Shown: piece after piece, positions 408 to 14,982 of the stretch
Numbering within the stretch: position 1 is the first letter of the stretch
How the letters are laid out: each line of letters starts with the position of its first letter
NCBI RefSeq assembly: GCF_003952465.1
Contig: NZ_CP034448.1
Span: 372,001 to 436,000 of the forward strand
Direction: 5' to 3'
Length of the DNA: 64,000 nucleotides
From: Mesorhizobium sp. M1B.F.Ca.ET.045.04.1.1
Lineage (GTDB): Bacteria > Pseudomonadota > Alphaproteobacteria > Rhizobiales > Rhizobiaceae
Notes under the pieces: model-generated
The model's database searches: none
Told to the model about the DNA's origin: nothing
The model's input: only the letters and a program-made list of their open reading frames with translations
Made by a program: the position numbers and the translations under genes

Positions 408-1739
408 TCATGCCGCCATCCTGCCGATCGAGTGGTATTCGATGCCGTAGCGCGCGATGACCTTCGGGTCGTAAAGGTTGCGGCCGTCGAAGATGACCGG
501 CGTGGTCAGCGCGTCCTTGAGCGCGTCGAAGGAGGGAGCCCTGAAGTTCTTCCATTCCGTGCAGATCAAAAGCGCGTCGGCGCCGCGCACGGCCGCTTCC
601 TTGGTGCCGCACAAGAGAAGGTCCTCGCGCATGCCGTAGATGGCCTGGCATTCCTGCATGGCCTCCGGATCATAAGCCTGCACCTTGGCGCCGGCCGCCC
701 ACAGCGCCTCCATCAGGGTGCGCGAAGGCGCCTCGCGCATGTCGTCGGTATTCGGCTTGAAGGCCAGCCCCCAGAGCGCAAACGTCTTGCCCTTGAGATT
801 GCCCTGGAAGTATCGGTCTACCTTCTCGAACAGCACCGATTTCTGCGCGTTGTTGCGCTCCTCGACGGCACGCAGCAGCTTGGCGTCGAACTTGACGCCC
901 TCAGCGGTCTTGATCAGCGCGCGCACATCCTTGGGAAAGCAGGAGCCGCCATAGCCGAGGCCGGGATAGATGAAGTGGTAGCCGATGCGCGGATCGCTGC
1001 CGATGCCCTTGCGCACCTCCTCGATGTCGGCGCCCAACTGCTCGGCGAGGTTGGCCATCTCGTTCATGAAGCTGATCTTGGTCGCCAGCATGCAATTGGC
1101 GGCATATTTGGTGAACTCGGCGCTGCGCACGTCCATCACGATCATCTTCTCGTGGTTGCGGTTGAACGGCGCGTAGAGCTCGCGCATCACCGCCTCGGTG
1201 TCCTCGCTGGAGGTGCCGACGATGATGCGGTCCGGCCTCATGCAATCGGCCACCGCCGAGCCTTCCTTGAGGAATTCGGGATTTGAAGCGACGTCGAACT
1301 GCAGATCCTCGCGGCCGCGCGCCTTCAGCGTCTCGGCGACCTTCGCCTTGATCTTCTCGCAAGTGCCGACCGGCACCGTCGATTTGCCGACGATGATCTT
1401 GGGCGCGTCCATCTCGCGGCCGATGGCTTCGGCGACGGCGAGCACGTATTTCAGGTCGGCCGAGCCATCCTCGCCGGGCGGCGTGCCGACAGCGATCATC
1501 TGGATCTGGCCGTGCTTGACCGCGGCGGCCGCGTCGGTGGTGAAGCGGATGCGGCCGGCGGCGTGGTTTTCCTTGACGAGGCTTTCCAGTCCTGGTTCGA
1601 AAATCGGGATGAGGCCTTGATTGAGCCGCTCCACCTTCGCTTCGTCGATGTCGACGCACACCACTTCGTGGCCGACCTCGGCGAGCACCGCGGCCTGGAC
1701 GAGACCGACATAGCCAATTCCAAACACCGTCAAATTCAT
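408..1739 (-). CDS. ugd: UDP-glucose 6-dehydrogenase
   Basis: This 443-residue protein oxidises UDP-glucose to UDP-glucuronate with two NAD+, supplying uronic acid for surface polysaccharides. The N-terminal NAD-binding motif GIGYVG is at residues 7-12 with the acidic strand end VCVDID after it. The catalytic cysteine sits in [10 protein letters not shown] (Cys267). The C-terminal UDP-binding Rossmann domain ([19 protein letters not shown]) is complete. Length matches the UDP-glucose/GDP-mannose dehydrogenase family. GDP-mannose dehydrogenase is a less likely alternative. It lies at the left end of the EPS locus, which fits a precursor-supply role. Confidence 0.93.
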
Positions 1740-3429: not shown

Positions 3430-4446
3430 TCATTCCTTTGCGGCACTTGTTGCCGACATCAGGAAGCGCATCGGCGGCACTTGCTGCTTTGCAGCAATGC
3501 CGGCGCGGCGAAACAGCGCGTCCAGCTTGTCAGCGGCCACGCCGCGAACGATCGGGATCAGATTGGACTGGCTGGCGAAGGCATAGGCGGCGGCCGACGC
3601 CAGCCCGCGCTCCGCCTTCACGTCGAGGAAATTACGCAGCCGGTATTTGTCGCGAACATGGCGCTCGTGGCGCCGCAATGCGGCCCTCGAGCCTTCCGGC
3701 AGGTTGCTGAGCGCGAGCAGCGCCAGGTCGGCATCGGCAAGCCGCTTCAGATCCTGGGTCCTGTGGCGGCCGCTCAGCGAGTCGGCGCGAACGATCGCGC
3801 CGTAGCCGCAGGATTTGATGATCTTGAAGCGCGCCCCGCAGGCGACCGCGCGCGCATAGAGCTCGTAATCCTCGCCGAGCCGCAGGTTTTCGTCATAGCT
3901 CAGTCCGTGACGCTCGAGGAATGCCCGGCTGATCACCGGCTTGAGGAAGCCCAGTTCGCCGCGCAGCACGCGGCGGCGCGAAATGTTGCCTTCGATGAAA
4001 CGCTCGAAATCGAGGAATTGCGGCTCGGGCGCAAAGGACGGCGCCGCGACCTTGGTGGGATCGGCCGCGGCATCGTCCCTGATCAGCATGATGTTGTCGG
4101 CGGCGAAATCCCAGTCGGCGCTGGCAAACAGCCGGCGGAAGCGGCCCTCGAGGAAGAAATCGTCGGCGTCGAGGATGCTGATGAAGGGCGAAATGGAGGC
4201 CTTGATCGCGGCGTTGCGGGCGGAAGACGGGCCGCGGTTGACGTCGAGGCGCATCACCTTGAGCCTGCCGCTGCCGTCATCGGCGGCGCGCGCCACATGT
4301 TGGGTGTCGTCGCTGGAGGCGTCGTCGACCACGACGACTTCCGCCACCTCCGCCTCGCGCAAAGCCGAAGCGATGGCGACCGGTATGGTCCGCGCCGCGT
4401 TGCGGGCGGCGATGATGACGCAGACCCTGGGGGTCGTCACGGACAT
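3430..4446 (-). CDS. Family 2 glycosyltransferase (ExoO/ExoU/ExoW-like)
   Basis: A 338-residue GT-A fold glycosyltransferase that should transfer a sugar from a nucleotide-sugar donor to a lipid-linked EPS repeat unit at the inner membrane. The N-terminus has VVVDDAS (38-44) for nucleotide binding and DADD (93-96) as the metal-binding DXD equivalent. LRLGEDYELYARAV in the middle is the usual acceptor/catalytic-base ED motif of this family. AAGGTG lies 5 bases before the ATG. It sits 62 bases downstream of the nucleotidyltransferase-fold gene, so it may be cotranscribed with it. The exact Exo counterpart and sugar specificity cannot be told by eye. Confidence 0.8.
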   Translation of the reverse strand: MSVTTPRVCVIIAARNAARTIPVAIASALREAEVAEVVVVDDASSDDTQHVARAADDGSGRLKVMRLDVNRGPSSARNAAIKASISPFISILDADDFFLEGRFRRLFASADWDFAADNIMLIRDDAAADPTKVAAPSFAPEPQFLDFERFIEGNISRRRVLRGELGFLKPVISRAFLERHGLSYDENLRLGEDYELYARAVACGARFKIIKSCGYGAIVRADSLSGRHRTQDLKRLADADLALLALSNLPEGSRAALRRHERHVRDKYRLRNFLDVKAERGLASAAAYAFASQSNLIPIVRGVAADKLDALFRRAGIAAKQQVPPMRFLMSATSAAKE

Positions 4447-4508: not shown

Positions 4509-5666
4509 TCATCCGTTGCCCCGCGCTGACGCGATGGCGGCCGGCCGCTCGAAGATGCGCCGGCTGAGATCGGCGGAGGCCGCCCAGCCGGCCTCGGCCA
4601 GATAGCGCACCGGCTCGCGGCCGCAAAGTTCCCACAGCACGGCCCGCCGCTGCGGCCAGCGCAACGACGACAGCCAGGGCGCGATCACCATGTGGAAGAG
4701 ATCGGCGTTTTCGATGCGCGCCAGGATGCGGGTGGCGCGATCCGAAAGCAGCGTGGCGGTGCCGCCAAGCAGGACATCGGCCGCGCGCAGACCAAGCAGC
4801 AGCGTATCCGCCAGGCCCTGCTCGGCGGCGTGGTCGAGCACCTTCCGCTGCTCGGCTTCGCTCAGCCGGTTGGCCGCGGCTCTGACGTCGCAGACATAGC
4901 CGGCGCAGGGCTCGCGGTTGAAGAAGGCCTTGGCCACGCTGATGCAGGACAAGAGCAACATGTCGGACGCCGAAATCAGGGGCATGGCGGTTCCGGCAAC
5001 CTCGACCTCGCGCTTGCGGCGCAGGAAGCCGTCGGTGTCGCGCGGGCTCGGCGAACCCGGTTGCTGCAGCCGATGGTGGAGATCGACCGTGGCAGCCCGA
5101 ACCCCGTCGTCGCGCACCATATGCTGCTCGCCGAGGAAGCGCACCCACCAGACCGAGCGCGACTTGCTTGCCACCTCGTAGCCGACGGAACGCAGGGCAT
5201 CGCGAGCGGCGGCAAAGCCCGCCGGCGAAACCAGTATGTCGACATCGCCGGACGGCTTCATGAAATGATCGCCATAAAGCACATGCTGCTGGAGCGGACC
5301 TTTCAGGAAGATGAAGTCGATCTGCCTGCCCCGCAGCACCTGATGGAAGGCGAGCGAATCGCCGATGCAGGCGGCGTTCATCGCCATGGTGCGCCGTCGA
5401 TAGCCATCGAGCCATGCGGGCAATCCGGCTGGCGCCGCGCCGGTCGTCCCGCGCGCCAGAGCCTTGAGCACGAAGACCGCGACCTTGTTCAACCTGGCAA
5501 TGTCGGCGACGTTGGCCACGGAGATTGCCGGAGCCGGCGTGCCGCCAAGGTCGGCGGCACCTGCGGCCGGACTGAAGAACAGCCGTAGACAGGCCTGCAC
5601 ATAGGCGACTTCGTCGGCGCAGCCGGCCGCACGCAGCCTGTCATAGGAAGCATCCTGCACGGCCAT
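4509..5666 (-). CDS. Nucleotidyltransferase-fold protein (NTP_transf_5 family), divergent from lasso-peptide operon
   Basis: A 385-residue protein with the pattern of the uncharacterised nucleotidyltransferase family PF14907: LKG at 121-123 and SGDVDILV at 139-146, the G-D-x-D metal-binding part of a nucleotidyltransferase active site, followed by VDLHHRL. I start it at the ATG at 5666; an upstream in-frame ATG at 5786 adds an Arg-rich stretch unlike the family. Members of this family are often encoded beside PqqD-like and asparagine-synthetase-like RiPP genes, and from memory one occurs in the paeninodin cluster. Here it is divergent from the lasso precursor across a 498-base intergenic region, so a role in tailoring is plausible but unproven. 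Confidence 0.72.
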   Translation of the reverse strand: MAVQDASYDRLRAAGCADEVAYVQACLRLFFSPAAGAADLGGTPAPAISVANVADIARLNKVAVFVLKALARGTTGAAPAGLPAWLDGYRRRTMAMNAACIGDSLAFHQVLRGRQIDFIFLKGPLQQHVLYGDHFMKPSGDVDILVSPAGFAAARDALRSVGYEVASKSRSVWWVRFLGEQHMVRDDGVRAATVDLHHRLQQPGSPSPRDTDGFLRRKREVEVAGTAMPLISASDMLLLSCISVAKAFFNREPCAGYVCDVRAAANRLSEAEQRKVLDHAAEQGLADTLLLGLRAADVLLGGTATLLSDRATRILARIENADLFHMVIAPWLSSLRWPQRRAVLWELCGREPVRYLAEAGWAASADLSRRIFERPAAIASARGNG

Positions 5667-5880: not shown

Positions 5881-6081
5881 TCTTCCCGGCTATAAAATAG
5901 GCATTCGCGAGCGGAAAATTATTGCAATTAAATCATAGGTTTATTTATGCGGGAAATATCCGGCGCTGAATTCTCGCGCGGGGCACGCCCGATTATGGGA
6001 TGCCTGTGGTTTGTTCACTGCAGAATATGCCCGCAACCGAGAATTGATTAACACCCGGTAAATCAGGCTTGACTCATAAAT

Positions 6082-6164: not shown

Positions 6165-6317
6165 ATGGAACAGAATGTTGAAAAGCATGAATACGAGACC
6201 CCCAGCCTGACGGTTCATGGTTCGATCGAAACGATCACGCAGGGTGCCTCAGGCACGACGGCTCTTGACGCGGCATTTCCCGCGCACACGCCGGTCGGCG
6301 ATCTCACCTTCTCCTGA
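6165..6317 (+). CDS. Lasso-peptide precursor (leader + core)
   Basis: A 50-residue peptide with GGAG 6 bases before the ATG. Residues 1-26 form the leader, with the class II lasso leader pattern Y10-xx-P13-x-L15-xxx-G19-xxxxx-T25. Thr25 is the essential penultimate leader residue. Cleavage after Gln26 releases a 24-residue core starting GASGTTALD and ending GDLTFS. Gly27 (core 1) and Asp35 (core 9) are spaced for a 9-residue macrolactam ring, and no other acidic residue falls at core 7-9. Bulky tail residues Phe12, His15 and Phe23 (core numbering) are candidate steric plugs. The C-terminal Ser is the residue phosphorylated in kinase-containing lasso pathways. B1, B2, C, K and D genes follow directly. 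It was too short to be listed among called ORFs. Confidence 0.88.
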   Translation: MEQNVEKHEYETPSLTVHGSIETITQGASGTTALDAAFPAHTPVGDLTFS

Positions 6318-6324
6318 AGGTTAA

Positions 6325-6360
6325 GGCGTCCGGCATGTCGTAGTTGGGGCTCCGGACGCC
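6325..6360 (+). terminator. Hairpin between precursor and processing genes (attenuator-like)
   Basis: GGCGTCCGG (6325-6333) pairs perfectly with CCGGACGCC (6352-6360) around an 18-base loop, 7 bases after the precursor stop. There is no long T run, so partial read-through is expected. Lasso operons commonly place such a hairpin after the precursor gene to give excess precursor mRNA over enzyme mRNA. Confidence 0.6.
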
Positions 6361-6475
6361 GCTTTAGCTAGATGGGCCGGGGGACCAGTTGCCCCGCTTA
6401 CTGGCCGGGCGATCGCAGGCAACCGATCCCGGTCCAGGTCGGAAGACGCGTGGCGTTCAACAATGAGGTTTTAGG

Positions 6476-6775
6476 ATGCACTGGAACCCATCGGACCATG
6501 ACCGCGTGGTCGCGACCGGCGATGCGGTGGCTTGCGAATTCGGCAACGGACTGGCGCTGCTCCATCTCAAATCCAACATCTACTACAGCCTGAACGGCGT
6601 CGGCGCCTACATCTGGGAGCTGATCCAGGAGCCGCGATCGATCCTCGACATAAGAAGCGCCGTGCTGACGCGCTACGATGTCGAAACGGAGCGCTGCAAG
6701 GCCGATGTCGAGGGCTTGCTCAAGGGGCTGATCGAAGCCGGGCTTGCGAGGCTCCACCATGAGGAACTGGCCTAA
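6476..6775 (+). CDS. PqqD-like lasso leader-binding protein (B1)
   Basis: A 99-residue PqqD-fold RiPP recognition element. Residues 18-95 have the family pattern: a beta start (ACEFGNGLALLHL), then NIYYSLNGVGAYIWELI, a helical region and LLKGLIEAGLARLH. Its job is to bind the precursor leader and present it to the B2 peptidase. GAGG lies 7 bases before the ATG. The gene is 158 bases downstream of the precursor, beyond the hairpin. Its TAA stop is formed by the first bases of an inserted 106-bp palindromic repeat (6773-6878), so the original stop or last residues may have differed. Confidence 0.88.
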   Translation: MHWNPSDHDRVVATGDAVACEFGNGLALLHLKSNIYYSLNGVGAYIWELIQEPRSILDIRSAVLTRYDVETERCKADVEGLLKGLIEAGLARLHHEELA

Positions 6776-6878
6776 AGCGCGTCGCGATCCTTCGGATTCG
6801 CTCCATGCGCTTTAAACTCTTGATTTTGCGCATGTCTTTGTCCCGAAACCGGTCCCACTTTCGGCAGACATGCTTTAG
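6773..6878 (+). repeat. Dispersed 106-bp double-hairpin repeat, copy 1 (inside the lasso operon)
   Basis: It starts TAAAGCGCGTCGCGATC and ends AGACATGCTTTAG. It has two stem-loops: AAAGCGC/GCGCTTT, and CATGTCT/AGACATG enclosing CCCGAAACCGG. Near-identical copies lie at 50441-50547 and 53682-53786. This copy fills the B1/B2 junction exactly: its first TAA ends B1 and its internal ATGs become the apparent start of B2. Confidence 0.85.
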
Positions 6879-7278
6879 GGTCCTCTCGCTGAGCGGCGCG
6901 GAGGCGCTGTTTCTGATGCGCTGCCTGGCAGTGGTCAGTGCCGTGCGGCTGGGACTGACCATCTTCTCCTATAACCGTGTGCGTGGCCTGGTGACGCGGC
7001 TGGAGGCGAGAGATGACGCTGATATCGCCGATCTGCGGCGCATCGCATGGGGCGTCGCCGCTGCCGCACGGTTTGTACCCGGCGCCAGCTGCCTCACCCA
7101 GGCGCTGTCCGGCCACTATCTGCTTGCCCGCCAGGGCAGCGCCTCGAAAATCCGCATCGGCGTGAGGCGCGACACCGGCGCGGAACTCAAGGCGCATGCC
7201 TGGCTGGTCAGCGGCAACCACATCGTGCTCGGCGGCTCGATCCACGGCTTCACCCATCTCGTCGATCACGGGCAATAG
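6805..7278 (+). CDS. Lasso-peptide leader peptidase (B2, transglutaminase-like cysteine protease)
   Basis: This 157-codon frame encodes the transglutaminase-fold protease (PF13471 type) that cuts the leader just before core Gly1. The family core is clear: FVPGASCLTQALSG with catalytic Cys96, the IRIGV strand, and AHAWL with catalytic His131. The third (Asp) residue is not obvious. Residues 1-24 are encoded by the inserted repeat, not by native sequence; native homology begins about VLSLSGAEALFLMR. No start in the repeat has a ribosome-binding site. An ATG at 6916 with GGAGG 11 bases upstream would give a shortened protein. The gene ends 3 bases before the cyclase gene. Confidence 0.8.
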   Translation: MRFKLLILRMSLSRNRSHFRQTCFRVLSLSGAEALFLMRCLAVVSAVRLGLTIFSYNRVRGLVTRLEARDDADIADLRRIAWGVAAAARFVPGASCLTQALSGHYLLARQGSASKIRIGVRRDTGAELKAHAWLVSGNHIVLGGSIHGFTHLVDHGQ

Positions 7279-7281
7279 GCC

Positions 7282-9201
7282 ATGAGCGGGGTCGCCGGAA
7301 TTCTGCTGAGGCAAGACGGCAGGCCCGCCGCGGCAGCCGACATCCAGCAGATGCTGGCGCGCATGCGCCACCGGGGCCGCGACGGCAGCTCGTGGTGGAC
7401 GGACAGAAGCGTGGCGCTTGGCCATGCCTGGCTCGACACGACGGGCGAGGACGGTCCCGGCCCGCTGACCATGGCCGGCGGCAAGCTCGCCGTCACGGCG
7501 GATTGCAGGCTGGACAACCGCGACGAGCTTTTGGCGCGGCTCGGCATACGCGACCCGACGGCCGCCGACGCGATGCTTTTGTTGCGCGCCTATCTCAAAT
7601 GGGGCGAGGCCTGCCCGACCTATCTGCAAGGCGATTTCGCCTTCGCGATCTGGGATGCCGAGCGCCGGGCATTGTTTTGCGCCCGCGACCATTTCGGCAT
7701 CAAGCCGTTCTACTACCACGCGGGCGCCAGGCGCTTCGCGTTTGCCTCGGAGATCGGCCCGCTGCTGGTCCTGGAGGGTGTCAACACACGCATCAGCGAG
7801 CATCAGATTTCCGGATTCCTTGCCGGGCTGCCCGACGATCCACAGTCGACCCACTATGCCGAGATCTTCCGTTTGCCGGCACGCCATACCCTGACGGTGA
7901 CGGACAACCAGGTGACGCTTCGTCAGTACTGGCACATCGAGCCTTCGCCAGAGCCGCTGCGCTCGGACGCGGCCGAAGAATTCAGGCATCTCTTCTACCG
8001 GTCGGTGCAAAACCGGATGCGCGGCACCCCTGCTATTGGCGCAATGCTGAGCGGCGGCCTCGATTCATCCTCGATCGCCTGCGTGGCCGGCCTGCAAGCC
8101 GCAGCTGCGCGGAAACCGGAGCTCAAGACCTTCTCGCTGGTCTTCGAGAAGGGCTCACCGATGGACGAGAAGCCGTTCATCGATGCAGTACTGGGTCACC
8201 ACCGGCTCGACGGCACGATGATTTCCATCGGCAACTACGCGCCTTTCGCCGAGTTCGAACGCATCCTCGAGGAACAGGAAGGGACTTTCCTGGCGCCTGG
8301 CCTGTCGCTGACCCGCAGCATCTACCGGACAGCGGAAGCCAAACGGGTGAAGGTGCTGCTCGACGGCCATGGCGGCGACGAAGTCGTTTCGCACGGGCAT
8401 GGGCTGCTGCATGAGCTCGCCAAGGCGGGTCGATGGCTGGCGCTGTGGCGCGAGCTGCACAGCGCCGCCGACACCTATGGTGACGGCATGCTGTCGCTGT
8501 ATTTCAGGTTCCTGACCGTCTACGGGCCTGCTTGGCGGACCGCCAGGATGAGGGCGATGGCCAAACGCGTTCTCGGCAAGCTGCGGCGCAGACCATTCCA
8601 AGCGCCGCGCTCGGCCTGGGCGGGACTGGTCAATCCGGAGCTTGCCAGGCGCACCGACCTTGCCGAACGTTTCCACCGCGCCGGCTACATGCCGCCGAGC
8701 GTCAGTGCCAGCGAAGCGCTGACGCATCGCTGGCTTCTGTCCACCGGGCTGGTGCCGCACGCTTTCGAAGTCCTTGACAAGGCCGCCGCCAATTTCGGCA
8801 TCGAGCCCCGCTACCCGTTCTGGGACAAGCCGCTCGTTGAGTTCTGCCTGGCGCTGCCCGGCGAGGAAAAGCTCAAGGACGGCTTCGGCCGTCTTGTGCT
8901 GCGCCGAGCCATGCAGGGCATTCTGCCGCCCGTGGTGCAGTGGCGGCGCGACAAGATCGATTTTACCGCAAACCTCGTCAAAGGCATGATCGTCAATCAT
9001 CGCGATCTCCTGGACAGGCTGCTGGTGTCGGACAACGACTTGATCGCCCCCTATGTCAATCTGCCCGAAGTGAACGCCGCCTACGCCCGCATGCTTCGGG
9101 AGCCCGAGCAGGCGACGCTGCCCGATGTCCAACATATCTGGCGTTCGGCCTCGCTGTCGCTGTGGCTGCGGCAGGTCCAGCATGATGGAAGCCCTGCATG
9201 A
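7282..9201 (+). CDS. Lasso-peptide macrolactam synthetase (C, asparagine-synthetase B-like)
   Basis: A 639-residue homologue of asparagine synthetase B. The ATP-pyrophosphatase loop SGGLDSS is at 257-263, expected to adenylate the Asp9 side chain so that the Gly1 amine can attack and close the ring. The N-terminal glutaminase-like domain is present (RHRGRDG, FAIWD, ARDHFGIKPFYY), but the nucleophilic Cys2 of true glutamine-dependent synthetases is replaced by Ser (MSGVAG). It therefore cannot use glutamine, as is usual for lasso cyclases. The start lies 3 bases after B2 and its stop overlaps the kinase start by 4 bases (ATGA), so translation is coupled. Confidence 0.9.
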   Translation: MSGVAGILLRQDGRPAAAADIQQMLARMRHRGRDGSSWWTDRSVALGHAWLDTTGEDGPGPLTMAGGKLAVTADCRLDNRDELLARLGIRDPTAADAMLLLRAYLKWGEACPTYLQGDFAFAIWDAERRALFCARDHFGIKPFYYHAGARRFAFASEIGPLLVLEGVNTRISEHQISGFLAGLPDDPQSTHYAEIFRLPARHTLTVTDNQVTLRQYWHIEPSPEPLRSDAAEEFRHLFYRSVQNRMRGTPAIGAMLSGGLDSSSIACVAGLQAAAARKPELKTFSLVFEKGSPMDEKPFIDAVLGHHRLDGTMISIGNYAPFAEFERILEEQEGTFLAPGLSLTRSIYRTAEAKRVKVLLDGHGGDEVVSHGHGLLHELAKAGRWLALWRELHSAADTYGDGMLSLYFRFLTVYGPAWRTARMRAMAKRVLGKLRRRPFQAPRSAWAGLVNPELARRTDLAERFHRAGYMPPSVSASEALTHRWLLSTGLVPHAFEVLDKAAANFGIEPRYPFWDKPLVEFCLALPGEEKLKDGFGRLVLRRAMQGILPPVVQWRRDKIDFTANLVKGMIVNHRDLLDRLLVSDNDLIAPYVNLPEVNAAYARMLREPEQATLPDVQHIWRSASLSLWLRQVQHDGSPA

Positions 9202-10175
9202 ACCCTCGGGCCGTTTCTCTTGCCACAAGGCCCGAAGCGGCCGCTCGGAATGGACGCGTCCGTCGCTTCTACAAGGCGTACGGTCTGACGATTGGGTCCG
9301 AGGTGGCTCTACCGGAACTGGAACCGACCGCGCCGGCAACGCCGGACATCGAGATTGCTGTCGGGCCGATCGATTTTCCGGAGGCCGCATCGGCGAACGC
9401 CACGGCCTTCCGGTTCGAGCAGAGCCATCAATATCTTTCATGGCCGGCGATCGGGACATTCAGGATCAGCGGTGCCGGCCGAATCGATGTTGACGCAGCG
9501 CCCGGGATCGACGACCCGCTGCTTGCCTTCCCGCTTCTCGGGCCCGTGCTGGCGCTTGCCCTGCATCAGCGCCGTCTGCTCATCCTGCACGCCAGCGCGG
9601 TCGCGGTGGGTGACCAAAGCCTGATCTTCATGGGCGACAAAGGCGCCGGCAAGTCGACCATGGCGGGCGCGATGATCCGCGCCGGTCACCTTCTGCTTAC
9701 CGATGATGTCGTGGCGCTGGATCTGTCCAATCCTTCACGGCCGATGATCCTGCCCGGTTTTCCGCAGCTCAAGCTTGCAGCGGACGCTGCCGACGCAATC
9801 CGCATAGGCCAAGCGGAGGTGCGGCCGCAGGTGCATCCGCAGATCGAGAAGGCGCAGCATCGTCTGCGTGACGGATTTGCCGGCAAAGCCGTGAAGGCGG
9901 CCCGGATCTATGTGCTGGAGCGCGGGGAGCGGGCGGCGATCATGCCGCTGCCGGGCGCCGGCGCCCTGCCGGCGATCATCAAGTTCTCCTACGTCACCCG
10001 GTTTGGCCGACAGGCGCTGGTCGGCGATTTCGCGTCCACGCATCTCAGTCAATGCGCGCAGCTTGCCGCTCGCATCGGCGTCTGCCGGCTTGAAGTGCCG
10101 GCAGGGCTGGGGCGGATCGATGAAGTCGTCGACCTGATCGAGCGCGATCTGGCGGCAGGCGCGCAAACAAGGTGA
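9198..10175 (+). CDS. HPr-kinase-like peptide kinase of the lasso cluster (K)
   Basis: A 325-residue protein related to HPr Ser kinase/phosphorylase. HAS at 131-133 and the P-loop GDKGAGKST at 146-154 are followed by LLTDDVVALD (166-175), the characteristic strand with paired Asp. In paeninodin-type pathways, homologues (PadeK/ThcoK) phosphorylate the hydroxyl of the C-terminal Ser of the precursor. The precursor here ends in Ser, consistent with that reaction. It lacks the N-terminal HPrK domain seen in Gram-positive HPr kinase. It overlaps the cyclase gene by 4 bases and precedes the exporter gene. Alternative: a kinase with another target, since HprK-like genes also occur in other PqqD clusters. 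Confidence 0.83.
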   Translation: MNPRAVSLATRPEAAARNGRVRRFYKAYGLTIGSEVALPELEPTAPATPDIEIAVGPIDFPEAASANATAFRFEQSHQYLSWPAIGTFRISGAGRIDVDAAPGIDDPLLAFPLLGPVLALALHQRRLLILHASAVAVGDQSLIFMGDKGAGKSTMAGAMIRAGHLLLTDDVVALDLSNPSRPMILPGFPQLKLAADAADAIRIGQAEVRPQVHPQIEKAQHRLRDGFAGKAVKAARIYVLERGERAAIMPLPGAGALPAIIKFSYVTRFGRQALVGDFASTHLSQCAQLAARIGVCRLEVPAGLGRIDEVVDLIERDLAAGAQTR

Positions 10176-10183
10176 TAAGAGGC

Positions 10184-12097
10184 ATGGCCTGGTCCTCAAA
10201 GCTTCGCCTGTCGCTTTTGCGGGATGTCGCCGGCTTCGGCGGCGTGATGGCGCAGGTCGGTGGGCGGCGCACGGCGACGGCGCTGGCCTTCCTGATCCTG
10301 GGAAGCCTGACCGAGGGGCTCTCGATCCTGCTGTTGATCCCGCTCCTGCATCTGATCGGCAACGCCGACCAGGATTTCGCCGTGCGGATGCCGAACGCAC
10401 TGCGCTGGGTGGCGCCCGGCGGCACGCTGTCGCTGGCGACGGTGCTCGCCCTGCTCGTCGCCCTGGTGGCGCTGCAGGCGATGTTCAACCGTTTCAAGTC
10501 GCTCTACATGGCGCGGCTGCTCTATGACTTCGTCAACCGCGTGCGCATGAACCTGTTCGAGAGCATCGGCAAGGCGCGCTGGGGCGTCTTCACGCGCATG
10601 CGCAGCTCCGACCTCGACCATGCGCTGACCGGCGACATCGATCGCGTGCAGGCGGCCGCCTTCTCGCTGCTGATGCTCGCCCAGACGGCGCTGCTGCTTG
10701 CCGGCTATCTCGTGGTGTCGCTGTTCATCTCACCGGTGATGACGTCCTTCGCCATCCTCATCGGCGTGCTCTTGTTCGTCGCGCTGCAGCCCTTCCGTGC
10801 GCGCGCCACCGCCTATGGCCGCGTGCTGACCGGCAGCCGCCAGGACCAGTACCGCACGGTTTCGGAATTCCTCGGCGGCATCAAGGTGGCCAAGAGCCTG
10901 AACGTCGAGGCGGGTTATTTCACGCAGCTCCGCGCGACGCTCGAGAAGATGAAGGCGGACAACATCGCTTATGTCCGCAACAGCACCATCGGTACCGCGC
11001 TGTTCCAGGTGACGAGCGTCATCGGGCTCAGCCTGTTCATCTATATCGCGCTGGTGCGCTTTCACCTGTCGCTCGCCGAGATCGTCGTGCTGCTCTTGGT
11101 CTTCATGCGGGTCGCGCCGCGCTTCATGGATATGCAAGTGCAGGCGCAGCAAATGCTGATCAACCTGCCGGCATATACCGCCATGCAGGCCCTCAAGGCG
11201 CGCTTCGACGCCGAGCGCGAAATGGTGCCGGGCGATGCCGGACATGGCGCCAGGCTGTCGCTCGACACCGGCCTCAACGTCCGCGACGTCTTGTTTGCCT
11301 ATGGCGACGGCGACGGAAAACCGGTGGTCGAAGGCATCACCTTCGACCTTCCCGCCGGCAAGGTGACGGCGCTGATCGGCCCGTCCGGCTCGGGAAAGAG
11401 CACGATCGCCGACATGCTGCTTGGACTGCTCGAGCCGACCGAGGGCACGATCCTTGCCGACGGCGTCGAGATCACTGCCAAGAACCGCAGGGCCTGGCGC
11501 GACCAGGTGGCCTATGTGCCGCAGGACGTGTTCCTGCTGCACGACACGATCGCCGCCAATCTGCGCCTGGCTGCGCCGCGGGCCAGCGACGAGGAGCTTT
11601 GGACGGCGCTGCGCAAGGCGCATGCGGCCGATTTCGTCGAGCGGCTCGACCGGAGGCTGGAGACGGTGGTGGGCGACCGCGGCGTCCGGCTCTCGGGCGG
11701 CGAACGCCAGCGCATCGCGCTGGCGCGGGCGCTGTTGCGCAAACCCGTGCTGCTCATCCTCGACGAGGCTACAAGCGCGCTCGACTGGCAAAATCAGTCG
11801 CTGATCGCCCAATCGATCGAAGACCTGCGCGGCCAGATGACGATCCTCACCATCGCGCACCGGCCGTCGATGATCGCTTTCGCCGACTGGGTCGTGGCCA
11901 TCGAGAGCGGGCGCATCGTCGAGGTCGGGCAATATCAAAGGCTGAAGGCAAAGCCCGGCAGCCGGCTGGCCAGAATGCTCTCCGGCGAGCGAGCCGAACG
12001 GGAAACCGCAACGCTGGCCGACAAGGCATTGGCCGACAATGCGCCGCTTCCGGCGCCGGGTGAACGATCAGCGGAGGCTGCCGCGCCTGGCGCTTAG
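10184..12097 (+). CDS. ABC-type lasso-peptide exporter (D; fused membrane and ATPase domains)
   Basis: A 637-residue half-transporter that works as a dimer in the inner membrane to export and give self-immunity to the mature peptide. Residues about 20-320 carry six predicted transmembrane helices. The ATPase domain has Walker A GPSGSGKST near residue 400, Q-loop YVPQD, signature LSGGERQR near 503 and Walker B LLILDEAT near 525. I chose ATG 10184 because AGGTGAT precedes it at proper spacing; a GTG at 10172 overlapping the kinase stop is possible. The 3' end overlaps the convergent exoX gene by 30 bases. Confidence 0.88.
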   Translation: MAWSSKLRLSLLRDVAGFGGVMAQVGGRRTATALAFLILGSLTEGLSILLLIPLLHLIGNADQDFAVRMPNALRWVAPGGTLSLATVLALLVALVALQAMFNRFKSLYMARLLYDFVNRVRMNLFESIGKARWGVFTRMRSSDLDHALTGDIDRVQAAAFSLLMLAQTALLLAGYLVVSLFISPVMTSFAILIGVLLFVALQPFRARATAYGRVLTGSRQDQYRTVSEFLGGIKVAKSLNVEAGYFTQLRATLEKMKADNIAYVRNSTIGTALFQVTSVIGLSLFIYIALVRFHLSLAEIVVLLLVFMRVAPRFMDMQVQAQQMLINLPAYTAMQALKARFDAEREMVPGDAGHGARLSLDTGLNVRDVLFAYGDGDGKPVVEGITFDLPAGKVTALIGPSGSGKSTIADMLLGLLEPTEGTILADGVEITAKNRRAWRDQVAYVPQDVFLLHDTIAANLRLAAPRASDEELWTALRKAHAADFVERLDRRLETVVGDRGVRLSGGERQRIALARALLRKPVLLILDEATSALDWQNQSLIAQSIEDLRGQMTILTIAHRPSMIAFADWVVAIESGRIVEVGQYQRLKAKPGSRLARMLSGERAERETATLADKALADNAPLPAPGERSAEAAAPGA

Positions 12098-12334
12098 CTT
12101 TTCGCCCTCGGCCACCTTGATGCCACGGTCGGCCTCTCGGCTCTTATCGGCGGGCACTGGCCCGCTCCTGGCAATCATGGCGTAGACCAGAAGGAAATAA
12201 CCCACCTGAATGACCACGGCGCAAATGACGGTACGCATGATGATGGTGCCAAGCGATGCGCCGTCGAAGTAAGACCAGCCGACCACGATCGCGAGCGCGA
12301 ATATCATCCCGACGATGAATTTTGGTAAAGACAT
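12068..12334 (-). CDS. exoX: Exopolysaccharide production repressor, ExoX/SyrA-like small membrane protein
   Basis: An 88-residue protein starting MSLPKFIVGM. Two transmembrane segments are visible (about residues 5-22 and 28-52, ending VICAVVIQVGYFLLVYAMIA), followed by a charged cytosolic tail. This is the pattern of the ExoX/PsiA/SyrA family, in which ExoX represses EPS synthesis after transcription through its ratio to ExoY. The much longer ORF extension upstream (to 12583) is Arg-rich and not supported. The gene is divergent from exoY across 607 bases, the same exoX-exoY arrangement as in Sinorhizobium. Its 3' end overlaps the lasso exporter gene. Confidence 0.8.
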   Translation of the reverse strand: MSLPKFIVGMIFALAIVVGWSYFDGASLGTIIMRTVICAVVIQVGYFLLVYAMIARSGPVPADKSREADRGIKVAEGEKLSARRGSLR

Positions 12335-12941: not shown

Positions 12942-13619
12942 ATGAGGGACGTCGCCAAGCCGGCCAATGCGGGTTTTTCGCAGGCCGGCATTGATTTTCC
13001 ACCCCCCATCGGCGGTCTGCTCAAACGCAGTTTCGATATCGTCGGTTCGCTCGCCGGTCTGATTCTGCTCAGCCCGCTCTTCCTGATGGTCGCCCTGCTG
13101 GTCAAGCTTTCCGACCGCGGGCCGATCTTCTATGGCCACAAGCGGATCGGCCGCGGCGGAAGGATTTTCGCCTGCCTCAAATTCCGCACCATGGTCCAGG
13201 ATGGCGAGAAGGTACTCGCGGCGCATCTGGCCGCCAATCCGGACGCCAATGCCGAGTGGCTGGCGACGCGCAAGCTGAAGAACGATCCGCGCGTGACGCG
13301 TGTCGGCCAGGTGCTGCGCAAGCTCAGCCTCGACGAGCTGCCGCAGATCATCAACATCCTGCAAGGCGACATGAGCCTTGTCGGGCCGCGCCCGGTCGTG
13401 CGCGACGAGCTCGAGATCTACGGCAGCGCCGCCGTCTACTATCTGAAGTCGCGCCCCGGTCTCACCGGGCTGTGGCAGGTGAGCGGACGCAACGACGTGT
13501 CCTACGACACGCGCGTCGCCTTCGATCGCCACTATGTCGAGAACTGGTCGATGGTCGAGGACATTCGCATCATCGTCAAGACCGTGCCAGCCGTGTGGAT
13601 GTCGCGCGGCAGCTATTGA
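12942..13619 (+). CDS. exoY: Undecaprenyl-phosphate galactose phosphotransferase ExoY
   Basis: A 225-residue initiating sugar-phosphate transferase that loads galactose-1-phosphate (or glucose-1-phosphate) onto undecaprenyl phosphate to start each EPS repeat unit. One membrane-entry helix (residues about 30-52, FDIVGSLAGLILLSPLF) is followed by the conserved catalytic stretch: KFRTM, DELPQIINILQGDMSLVGPRP, and PGLTGLWQVSGR. Length equals that of short ExoY/PssA-type transferases lacking the large membrane domain. It is first in the exoY-exoF-exoZ-like operon and divergent from exoX. Sugar specificity is inferred from family and context. Confidence 0.92.
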   Translation: MRDVAKPANAGFSQAGIDFPPPIGGLLKRSFDIVGSLAGLILLSPLFLMVALLVKLSDRGPIFYGHKRIGRGGRIFACLKFRTMVQDGEKVLAAHLAANPDANAEWLATRKLKNDPRVTRVGQVLRKLSLDELPQIINILQGDMSLVGPRPVVRDELEIYGSAAVYYLKSRPGLTGLWQVSGRNDVSYDTRVAFDRHYVENWSMVEDIRIIVKTVPAVWMSRGSY

Positions 13620-13677
13620 CCGACGGGCCTCCCCGCCGAACTCGGGGCAGGTATCCGGCAGTGATCTCATCGGGCGG

Positions 13678-14982
13678 ATGGGGCCAAAGCGGATCGGAAA
13701 CGTTCATTTGAAAAAACACCCCTTCGGACTGTCTTTCGCCTGCAGTCTTCTTTCCAGGGCGCCCGGCCGATTCGCGGCCGCGGCGCTTGCGATGTCTCTG
13801 CTTACGCCGCAGATGGCGGCGGCCGAGGATTACCGGCTCGGCCCGCAGGACAAGCTCAACATCCGCGTCGCCGAATGGCAGACGGTCGACGGCACGTTCC
13901 GCGACTGGTCGGCGATCAACGGCGACTACTCGGTCGGCCCCGCCGGGACGCTCTCGGTGCCTTTCGTGGGCGAGATGCAGGCGGCCGGGAAGACGACGTC
14001 GGAGGTCGCAAATGCGATCGGGCTTACGCTGCAGCGCAAGCTGGCCCTGCCCGACAAGCCTGAAGCCTCGGTCGAAATGGCCCAGTTCCGGCCGTTCTAC
14101 ATTTCGGGCGAAGTGCAGAACCCCGGCCAGTTTCCCTATGTGCCCGACCTGACGGTACTGAAGGCGCTGAGTATAGCCGGCGGCATCCGGCGCAGCGCCG
14201 ATTACGGCCCTCAGCTCGGCAAGGACCTGGTCACCGCCAAGGGCAGTTTCGATATTTATGACGACCAGCGGCTGCGGCTGATCATCAAGCGCGCCCGCAT
14301 CGATGCGGACCTCGCCGGCAAAGCGAGCTTCGACGTGCCGAAGGAGGTCGAGGGCGATCCGAGAGTGCAGGCGATCGTCGCCGACGAAATGCAGATTCTG
14401 ACGGCCGACCAGAAGGCGCTGAAGCTGAAGCTCGACGCGCTCGACGACCTGAAAGGGGTTCTGCAGGGCGAAATCGAATCGCTGGAGAAGAAGATCGCCA
14501 ACCAGCAGCAGCAGGTGGATCTGGCGCAGCAGCAGCTCACCAGCATCGGTCCGCTGGCGCAGAAGGGCCTGGTCGCCAATGCGCGGCTGCTCGATTCGAA
14601 ACAGTCGGTGGCCGACCTGCAGGGCAAGATCCTGGACTATGAAACGGCGATCCTCACCGCCAAGCAGTCGATCAGCAAGGCCGAGCAGGACGCCATCGAT
14701 GCCCGCAACACGCTCAATTCCAACCTGGCCGCCAGCCGGCAGCAGGCCGAGGCGGACCTCAACGAGGCGACGCTGAGGACAGCCATGCAGAAGGGCCTGA
14801 TCGCACAGGCGTCGGATCCGGCGACGATGGCCACCATGACCGGCAGCGAGGAACCCACTCTGCTTTATTCGCTGGTGCGCGTTGCCGACGGCAAGACCAG
14901 CGAGGTCGACGCCAAGGAAGACACGCCGGTGCTGCCGGGCGACGTGATCAAGGTCAAGCTGGCGCCGACGGCCAGCCAATAG
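13678..14982 (+). CDS. exoF: EPS export outer-membrane/periplasmic protein ExoF (polysaccharide biosynthesis/export family)
   Basis: A 434-residue OPX-type protein. It has a signal sequence (hydrophobic AAAALAMSLLTPQMAAA), a polysaccharide export domain starting EDYRLGPQDKLNIRV, an SLBB-like segment (RPFYISGEVQNPGQFPYVPDLTVLKALSIAGG), and a long coiled coil (LKLKLDALDDLKGVLQGEIE and on through the QQQQVDLAQQQ region). It ends in a beta-rich segment with VLPGDVIKVKL. It works in translocation of the EPS across the periplasm. Start is uncertain: ATG 13678 or TTG 13708, the latter with GGAAA upstream. It follows exoY by 58 bases. Confidence 0.87.
   Translation: MGPKRIGNVHLKKHPFGLSFACSLLSRAPGRFAAAALAMSLLTPQMAAAEDYRLGPQDKLNIRVAEWQTVDGTFRDWSAINGDYSVGPAGTLSVPFVGEMQAAGKTTSEVANAIGLTLQRKLALPDKPEASVEMAQFRPFYISGEVQNPGQFPYVPDLTVLKALSIAGGIRRSADYGPQLGKDLVTAKGSFDIYDDQRLRLIIKRARIDADLAGKASFDVPKEVEGDPRVQAIVADEMQILTADQKALKLKLDALDDLKGVLQGEIESLEKKIANQQQQVDLAQQQLTSIGPLAQKGLVANARLLDSKQSVADLQGKILDYETAILTAKQSISKAEQDAIDARNTLNSNLAASRQQAEADLNEATLRTAMQKGLIAQASDPATMATMTGSEEPTLLYSLVRVADGKTSEVDAKEDTPVLPGDVIKVKLAPTASQ

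What the first reader, a model, noticed from the sequence alone, without database searches (positions are those of the whole stretch)
6165..12097. Complete lasso-peptide biosynthetic operon with a previously uncalled precursor
A 50-residue reading frame too short for ORF calling has the lasso leader pattern YxxPxLxxxGxxxxxT with Thr at -2, and a 24-residue core starting GASGTTALD and ending GDLTFS. Gly1 and Asp9 are spaced for a 9-residue ring. B1 (PqqD-like), B2 (transglutaminase-like), C (Asn-synthetase-like with Cys2 replaced by Ser), K (HPr-kinase-like) and D (ABC exporter) follow in order. I do not recognise this core as a known lasso peptide. Gene roles follow established lasso biosynthesis; the product is inferred.
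Basis: partly seen in the sequence, partly recalled or inferred. Interest (0 to 1): 0.93.

Follow-up and report, generated by a model that had tools for sequence, protein, structure and literature searches.

The report
Lasso peptide locked in exopolysaccharide locus
Most Mesorhizobium species examined carry, inside their exopolysaccharide genes, a gene set that likely makes one conserved knot-shaped (lasso) peptide, predicted to be tagged with phosphate and perhaps sugar, which would make a link between lasso peptides and the bacterial surface coat testable.

Summary
The 50-residue frame at 6165-6317 is a lasso precursor (over the NCBIfam NF033528 cut-off), followed in order by B1, B2, C, K and D; the hand masses are right. 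It is not new to annotation: NCBI already calls homologues 'lasso peptide'. The finding stops too early on both sides. A divergent nucleotidyltransferase gene (N, 4509-5666, PF14907) belongs to the cassette: N occurs in 104 of 146 Mesorhizobium genomes, the 103 with the cyclase plus one fragment. The flanking glycosyltransferase, ExoX-like and WbaP-like genes also occur without it. Wherever the flanks could be read (102 of 103 each), the cassette sits between the same exopolysaccharide (EPS) genes; it is co-inherited with them and was lost mainly in one subclade, with remnants. Gly1, Asp9, FP, TP and the terminal TFS are invariant in 103 of 103. In a distant alphaproteobacterial genus N is fused to the EPS glycosyltransferase within the same kind of locus. 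Best reading: a Gly1-Asp9 lasso peptide, likely phosphorylated on its C-terminal Ser and then probably sugar-capped by N (as PsmN does for pseudomycoidin). No product, modification or activity was shown here. Boldest open reading: the lasso becomes attached to the polysaccharide.

The parts
6165..6317 (+). A: lasso precursor, 50 aa; leader 26 codons (6165-6242), core 24 codons (6243-6314)
   Evidence: NF033528 33.8 bits (cut-off 33), NF033521 23.6 (cut-off 19); conserved in 103 of 103 loci
6042..6077 (+). Conserved promoter-like block of A: AATTGATTAA-N5-GGTAAATCA-N2-CTTGACTCAT (dyad plus -35-like hexamer)
   Evidence: Both ten-base runs kept in 97% or more of the aligned upstream regions, the nine bases between in 85% or more; unique in the window. 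Role inferred
6318..6475 (+). A-B1 spacer with two predicted hairpins
   Evidence: Consensus fold of 102 distinct spacers, 94% of cells paired against 88% in shuffles, covariation barely above shuffles
6476..6775 (+). B1, PqqD-like leader-recognition protein
   Evidence: PF05402 E 2.4e-18
6805..7278 (+). B2, transglutaminase-like leader peptidase; about 24 N-terminal codons come from an inserted repeat
   Evidence: NF033537 67.1 bits, cut-off 33; repeat
7282..9201 (+). C, lasso macrolactam cyclase, Ser instead of Cys at position 2
   Evidence: NF033535 763.6 bits, cut-off 525
9198..10175 (+). K, HPr-kinase-like precursor Ser kinase
   Evidence: Weak HprK matches below cut-offs; His131, Lys152, Asp169, Asp170 in 103 of 103
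10172..12097 (+). D, ABC exporter
   Evidence: PF00005 and PF00664
4509..5666 (-). N, nucleotidyltransferase of the cassette; likely start at 5666 (385 aa), not 5786
   Evidence: PF14907 E 1.8e-32; found only with the cassette or on one contig too short to tell; stops at or before codon 40 of the longer frame in 43 of 102 loci; NTase fold in the predicted model
3430..4446 (-). GT2 glycosyltransferase of the EPS locus, fused to N in another genus
   Evidence: PF00535; 138 of 146 genomes; fusion
12068..12334 (-). ExoX/SyrA-like exopolysaccharide repressor, between D and the WbaP-type gene
   Evidence: PF11089 29.5 bits, cut-off 25; NF052519 ExoX 41.5 bits, below its cut-off of 140; in 103 of 103 cassette loci and 34 of 34 loci without cassette
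12942..13619 (+). WbaP-type sugar transferase, downstream flank
   Evidence: PF02397; 137 of 146 genomes
13534..14982 (+). Polysaccharide export protein (start not settled; overlaps the gene before it)
   Evidence: PF02563
1910..2806 (-). GH16 glycanase of the EPS locus
   Evidence: PF00722
2911..3348 (-). 145-aa protein without Pfam match; matches part of the same frame as GH16 in two other genomes
408..1739 (-). UDP-glucose/GDP-mannose dehydrogenase
   Evidence: PF03721, PF00984, PF03720

Best explanation
This is a lasso-peptide cassette (N, A, B1, B2, C, K, D) set inside an exopolysaccharide locus of Mesorhizobium, and it likely makes a 24-residue lasso peptide with a predicted Gly1-Asp9 ring whose C-terminal Ser24 would be phosphorylated by K and probably then sugar-capped by N. 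Steps: B1 would bind the YxxPxL leader; K would phosphorylate Ser24 on the linear precursor (as PadeK does to PadeA); B2 would cut after Gln-1 with Thr at -2; C would close the ring; N, a nucleotidyltransferase-fold enzyme, would put a sugar or nucleotide group on the phosphate (as PsmN does in pseudomycoidin), perhaps drawing on the EPS sugar supply; D would export the product. Shown by sequence: the genes, their order, motifs, co-inheritance with EPS genes and conservation of the product. Inferred: every chemical step. Separate estimates: lasso product 0.95, Ser24 phosphorylation 0.8, sugar or nucleotide on that phosphate 0.5, a functional tie to EPS 0.5.
Against: No product, modification or activity was tested. 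K scores below every curated HPr-kinase cut-off. GT, ExoX-like and WbaP genes persist without the lasso cassette, so the EPS locus does not need it. Twelve cyanobacterial and acidobacterial loci with K show none of the four EPS probes within the stretches held (0 of 12) and N in only 5 of 12. In one of them (Calothrix, L101) TFS is not terminal: six residues follow. The operator-like block of A occurs nowhere else in the window, so shared control with EPS genes is not supported. PsmN's own donor and mechanism are unsettled in print.
Confidence: 0.7

Rival explanations
1. A stand-alone narrow-spectrum antimicrobial lasso peptide: the EPS position is an old integration site, N and K only mask or protect the peptide, and D gives immunity.
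For: Many known lasso peptides are antibacterial (recalled). Loci without the cassette keep a 1.0-1.6 kb GT-WbaP gap (34 of 34), so the EPS locus stands without it. The cassette was lost more than once or regained, with remnants in 8 of 34 loci.
Against: The core is under purifying selection (pN/pS 0.27; residues 10-24 0.21), with 9 invariant core residues including the last three; none of the block's genes that I scanned looks like a dedicated immunity gene beyond D; N is fused to the EPS glycosyltransferase in another genus within the same kind of locus.
Confidence: 0.3
2. An extracellular signal: the modified lasso peptide is sensed by kin and tunes EPS output or biofilm, perhaps through the neighbouring ExoX-like repressor.
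For: Conserved product and EPS position; an ExoX/SyrA-like EPS repressor gene lies next to D in 103 of 103 cassette loci; a unique conserved dyad in the A promoter.
Against: The ExoX-like gene is there without the cassette too (34 of 34); no peptide-sensor gene was recognised among the block's genes that I scanned; the dyad does not recur in the window.
Confidence: 0.2
3. A relic cluster without a product.
For: Two of 103 loci (L210, L211) have the cyclase in two pieces.
Against: The best matches of C, K, B1 and B2 hold no internal stop in 103 of 103 loci (partial for C in those two) and A is 50 aa in 103 of 103; leader pN/pS 0.044.
Confidence: 0.03

Closest known systems
Paeninodin (Paenibacillus dendritiformis; kinase PadeK)
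   Same: Lasso cluster with an HPr-kinase-like K, a His-Lys-Asp-Asp motif and a C-terminal Ser as target (review passages)
   Different: Other core (recalled); here an N gene is added and the cassette sits in an EPS locus; the paeninodin genes were not compared by sequence
Pseudomycoidin (Bacillus pseudomycoides; PsmK and PsmN)
   Same: K plus a nucleotidyltransferase; PsmN is reported to put one or two hexoses on the phosphorylated Ser
   Different: Here N is divergent, sits in an EPS locus and is fused to a glycosyltransferase in relatives; PsmN itself was not compared by sequence
SyanA/SyanK of Sphingobium yanoikuyae
   Same: Proteobacterial precursor with a C-terminal Ser and a tailoring kinase
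   Different: Not compared by sequence here
Cyanobacterial precursors of loci L099-L101 (Nostoc, Calothrix)
   Same: Same leader type and core scaffold GxxxxxxxDxxFPxxTPxxxxTFS with K beside it
   Different: Precursor lies after C; below the NF033528 cut-off (30.1 and 27.5 bits for L099 and L101); no EPS probe match nearby; Calothrix has six residues after TFS
Butyrivibrio fibrisolvens lasso clusters
   Same: HPr kinase, nucleotidyltransferase, GT2 and EpsH genes reported with lasso genes (PMC7533575, passages)
   Different: Firmicutes; in the passages seen, co-occurrence is reported without a link to a polysaccharide locus

Membership tests
Lasso peptide biosynthetic cluster (B1/B2 split type) | Precursor with YxxPxLxxxG leader, Thr at -2, Gly/Ala/Ser/Cys1 and Asp/Glu at 7-9 | tested here: met
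   Y, P, L, G, T(-2), G1 and D9 invariant in 103 of 103
Lasso peptide biosynthetic cluster (B1/B2 split type) | B1, B2 and C genes | tested here: met
   PF05402, NF033537 and NF033535; all over their cut-offs; B2 Cys96 and His131 in 103 of 103
Lasso peptide biosynthetic cluster (B1/B2 split type) | Threaded macrolactam product | not testable with these tools
   Needs expression, MS and NMR or thermal and protease tests
Kinase-tailored lasso peptides (paeninodin type) | HPr-kinase-like enzyme with His-Lys-Asp-Asp motif | tested here: met
   H131, K152, D169, D170 in 103 of 103; family matches themselves below cut-offs; that these four are the motif's residues is inferred from the review's wording
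Kinase-tailored lasso peptides (paeninodin type) | C-terminal Ser of the core | tested here: met
   Ser24 in 103 of 103
Kinase-tailored lasso peptides (paeninodin type) | Ser phosphorylation | not testable with these tools
   Needs MS
Nucleotidyltransferase-tailored lasso peptides (pseudomycoidin type) | Nucleotidyltransferase gene tied to the cluster | tested here: met
   PF14907 E 1.8e-32; 104 of 146 genomes, 103 of them with the cyclase. Kinship to PsmN was not checked
Nucleotidyltransferase-tailored lasso peptides (pseudomycoidin type) | Hexose on phospho-Ser | not testable with these tools
   Needs MS with and without N
NF033528 lasso_cyano | Score over the curated cut-off of 33 bits | tested here: met
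   Window's A 33.8 bits. Of 7 precursors from other lineages scanned, 0 reach the cut-off (16.3 to 32.0 bits)
FKRP/LicD-like phosphosugar transferases (for N) | Fold and active-site likeness | tested here: inconclusive

The most novel reading that the evidence does not exclude
The cassette is a device for hanging a lasso peptide on the bacterial surface polysaccharide: K makes phospho-Ser, N joins that phosphate to a sugar of the EPS pathway next to glycosyltransferase GT (with which it forms one protein in relatives), giving a lasso-capped exopolysaccharide or sugar-phosphate lasso held at the cell surface, in the genus Mesorhizobium and in scattered other alphaproteobacteria.
Probability: 0.12. 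Interest if true: 0.9.

Novelty: new variant of a known kind. Interest (0 to 1): 0.58.

Why it matters
Lasso clusters are usually thought of as patchy accessory loci making diverse products (recalled). Here one product has been kept through most of a genus known for legume symbionts at a fixed place in an EPS locus, with its likely tailoring enzyme N fused to the EPS glycosyltransferase elsewhere. That gives a concrete, single-gene-deletion route to two open questions: what the phosphate and sugar tags on lasso peptides are for, and whether some lasso peptides serve the cell surface rather than killing rivals.

Tried and rejected
GT as a lasso-only tailoring gene: rejected, because 138 of 146 genomes have it and only 103 the cyclase. 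Shared operator with EPS promoters: not found in the window. Class-wide search with NF033528: 4 of 385 genomes at E up to 0.01, only the window's own over the cut-off. Order-wide cyclase search: 11 of 397 at E up to 1e-70, 7 of them in the genus. A control set of kinase-free lasso clusters on plasmids failed: the cyclase query matched 301 records, and of the 60 listed most are Sinorhizobium places that are unannotated or named asnB, so there is no measured base rate for EPS adjacency of lasso clusters. EPS probes on cyanobacterial and acidobacterial loci: 0 of 12. NF033528 on 7 precursors of other lineages: 0 of 7 over the cut-off. PADLOC: no match for N, K or the 145-aa protein. PDB sequence search with the N alignment: none. 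Core strings in print: none of 4 strings or names in the held library.

Literature searched for a printed account. The 6 papers holding both 'lasso peptide' and 'Mesorhizobium' were seen as listing and abstract starts only; of the 52 holding 'lasso peptide' and 'rhizobi' 25 were listed. Two papers were seen as passages: PMC9266682 and PMC7533575. The library lacks most subscription papers, so 'not in print' is not claimed.
Full report
What is there. A passes NF033528 (33.8 bits, cut-off 33) and the lasso-leader model NF033521; B2 and C pass NF033537 and NF033535; B1 is PqqD. K matches HPr-kinase models only weakly (PF07475 28.1 bits against 33.3; TIGR04352 41 against 200) but carries the His, Lys (P-loop) and Asp-Asp residues in 103 of 103 loci. 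The review PMC9266682 (passages) names such a His-Lys-Asp-Asp motif for lasso kinases that phosphorylate the C-terminal Ser of the linear precursor.

Where it is. The window lies in a 7.78-Mb single-contig genome. Relatives held under the same genus code include contigs with the lengths of named Mesorhizobium records (for example 62,187 bases, Mesorhizobium silamurunense), and N is 98% identical to a protein named Mesorhizobium shonense.

The cassette is wider than reported. Upstream and divergent is N, a PF14907 nucleotidyltransferase. Its likely start is 5666: in 43 of 102 loci stops fall at or before codon 40 of the longer frame. Beyond it are GT (glycosyltransferase family 2), a 145-aa protein, GH16 and a UDP-sugar dehydrogenase. 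Downstream are an ExoX/SyrA-like EPS repressor (PF11089, 29.5 bits, cut-off 25), a WbaP-type sugar transferase, a polysaccharide export protein and an acyltransferase. This is an EPS locus.

Which genes travel together. Of 146 genus genomes searched, 103 have the cyclase at E up to 1e-90, 104 have N, 138 have GT and 137 have WbaP. The extra N genome is G122, 79% complete, whose 4.2-kb contig ends beside N. K at E up to 1e-5 is in 107, but in 4 of those it is a 28-30% match elsewhere. So N belongs to the lasso cassette, and GT and WbaP to the EPS locus. I fetched the 102 other cassette loci. With the window, A, B1, B2, C, K and D are in 103 of 103; GT and N in 102 (not L164); WbaP and export in 102 (not L212); both misses are stretches at contig ends. 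In the genomes without the cassette, the 34 loci with GT and WbaP have a gap of 1024-1567 bp between the two matches (34 of 34), and the ExoX-like gene is in it or beside it (34 of 34, and 103 of 103 with the cassette). Eight of the 34 keep remnants of D (7) or N (1) at E up to 1e-3, three at 1e-5 (best: 74 residues of D at 81% identity in L242), against none in 20 shuffled sets and one reversed set.

Ancestry. On a tree of GT plus WbaP (138 rows; G122 counted with the cassette; 51 of 135 inner branches weakly supported; midpoint root) the cassette's presence needs four changes. Nine rows without it form the most distant group and L250 is next. Of the other 24 rows without it, 23 fall in one subclade of 24 rows, which also holds one cassette-bearing row (L162), and L237 stands apart. 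The remnants all lie among these 24, none in the ten distant rows, so within the main clade the cassette was lost, more than once or with one regain; for the ten distant rows absence may be original. Protein distances of N, C, K and D track those of GT plus WbaP in 99 loci (Mantel r 0.926, 0.896, 0.906, 0.901; largest of 200 permutations 0.082; four loci, L164, L210, L211 and L212, left out beforehand). The cassette has thus been inherited with its EPS neighbours. Two of 103 loci (L210, L211) have a broken cyclase.

The product is conserved. All 103 precursors are 50 aa, with 51 distinct precursors and 32 distinct cores. Invariant core residues: G1, D9, F12, P13, T16, P17, T22, F23, S24. pN/pS is 0.044 for the leader, 0.27 for the core, 0.40 for the ring residues and 0.21 for residues 10-24 (97 distinct DNA sequences). 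In a distant alphaproteobacterium (L271) A is 74% identical to the window's over 42 residues, while C, K and N are 42-44% identical. The scaffold GxxxxxxxDxxFPxxT....TFS recurs in Nostoc, in Calothrix (with six residues after it) and, as TLS, in a Pyrinomonadaceae MAG. None of 7 precursors from other lineages reaches the NF033528 cut-off.

The EPS tie recurs. L271 (contig length equal to that of Pararhizobium sp. IMCC21322) and L098 (an alphaproteobacterial MAG; L272 is the same contig) have the order GH16, N-GT fusion, A, B1, B2, C, K, D, WbaP, export. N-GT is one reading frame there, and five of the seven protein clusters found with it carry both PF14907 and PF00535. L273 has N, GH16 and the export gene beside its lasso genes. 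I looked at ten plasmid regions: all 4 records found with A, 8 of 13 records found with K (three of them also found with A) and one more of 301 found with C. Paracoccus, Sulfitobacter, two Azospirillum and Antarctobacter have glycosyltransferase or polymer genes near lasso genes; Halopiger (an archaeon) has an annotated nucleotidyltransferase and a flippase; Thalassobaculum lists galE and a sulfotransferase; Priestia lists galU and a short polysaccharide gene; Nostoc lists none; Tistrella pTM2 has a kinase without lasso genes. These regions were picked by similarity to A, K or C, and no base rate was obtained. Against generality, 0 of 12 cyanobacterial and acidobacterial loci match the EPS probes.

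Verdict. An orthodox lasso cluster in its predicted chemistry, already recognisable to current annotation, but with an unusual biology: one product kept through most of a genus inside an EPS locus, with a likely sugar-linked tailoring enzyme. The EPS conjugate is the boldest reading not excluded.

Noticed in passing
window 6774-6878: A 105-bp repeat sits at the B1 stop and supplies about 24 N-terminal codons of the B2 frame; at least 40 copies in the genome (40 of 130 candidates scored). The same repeat family lies there in 4 of 103 loci, in opposite orientation in three; L131, L147, L158 and L188 carry other extra sequence at that place, so this junction may be an insertion hot spot.
   Followed up: partly
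window 6042-6077: Strongly conserved dyad plus TTGACT-like block upstream of A, unique in the window; regulator unknown.
   Followed up: partly
window 6318-6475: Two hairpins predicted in the A-B1 spacer across 102 distinct sequences; covariation barely above shuffles (6 pairs with double changes against a mean of 5.3).
   Followed up: partly
L284 (Halopiger xanaduensis plasmid): A haloarchaeal plasmid carries B1, B2 and C lasso genes, a K match spread over two annotated genes, a nucleotidyltransferase and a flippase.
   Followed up: no
L274 (G752): Three lasso precursor-like frames in a row (cores starting near GSG) between C and K in a distant genome of the same order.
   Followed up: no
L103: An acidobacterial MAG locus with two different lasso precursor-like frames, one ending TPFRDVTLS.
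   Followed up: no
L277 and L279 (Azospirillum plasmids): Lasso genes with a K match, an aspartyl/asparaginyl hydroxylase or 2OG oxygenases, tail-fibre genes and O-antigen or glycosyltransferase genes nearby.
   Followed up: no
L210 (G050), L211 (G077): Cyclase gene found in two pieces; a possible early stage of cassette loss.
   Followed up: no
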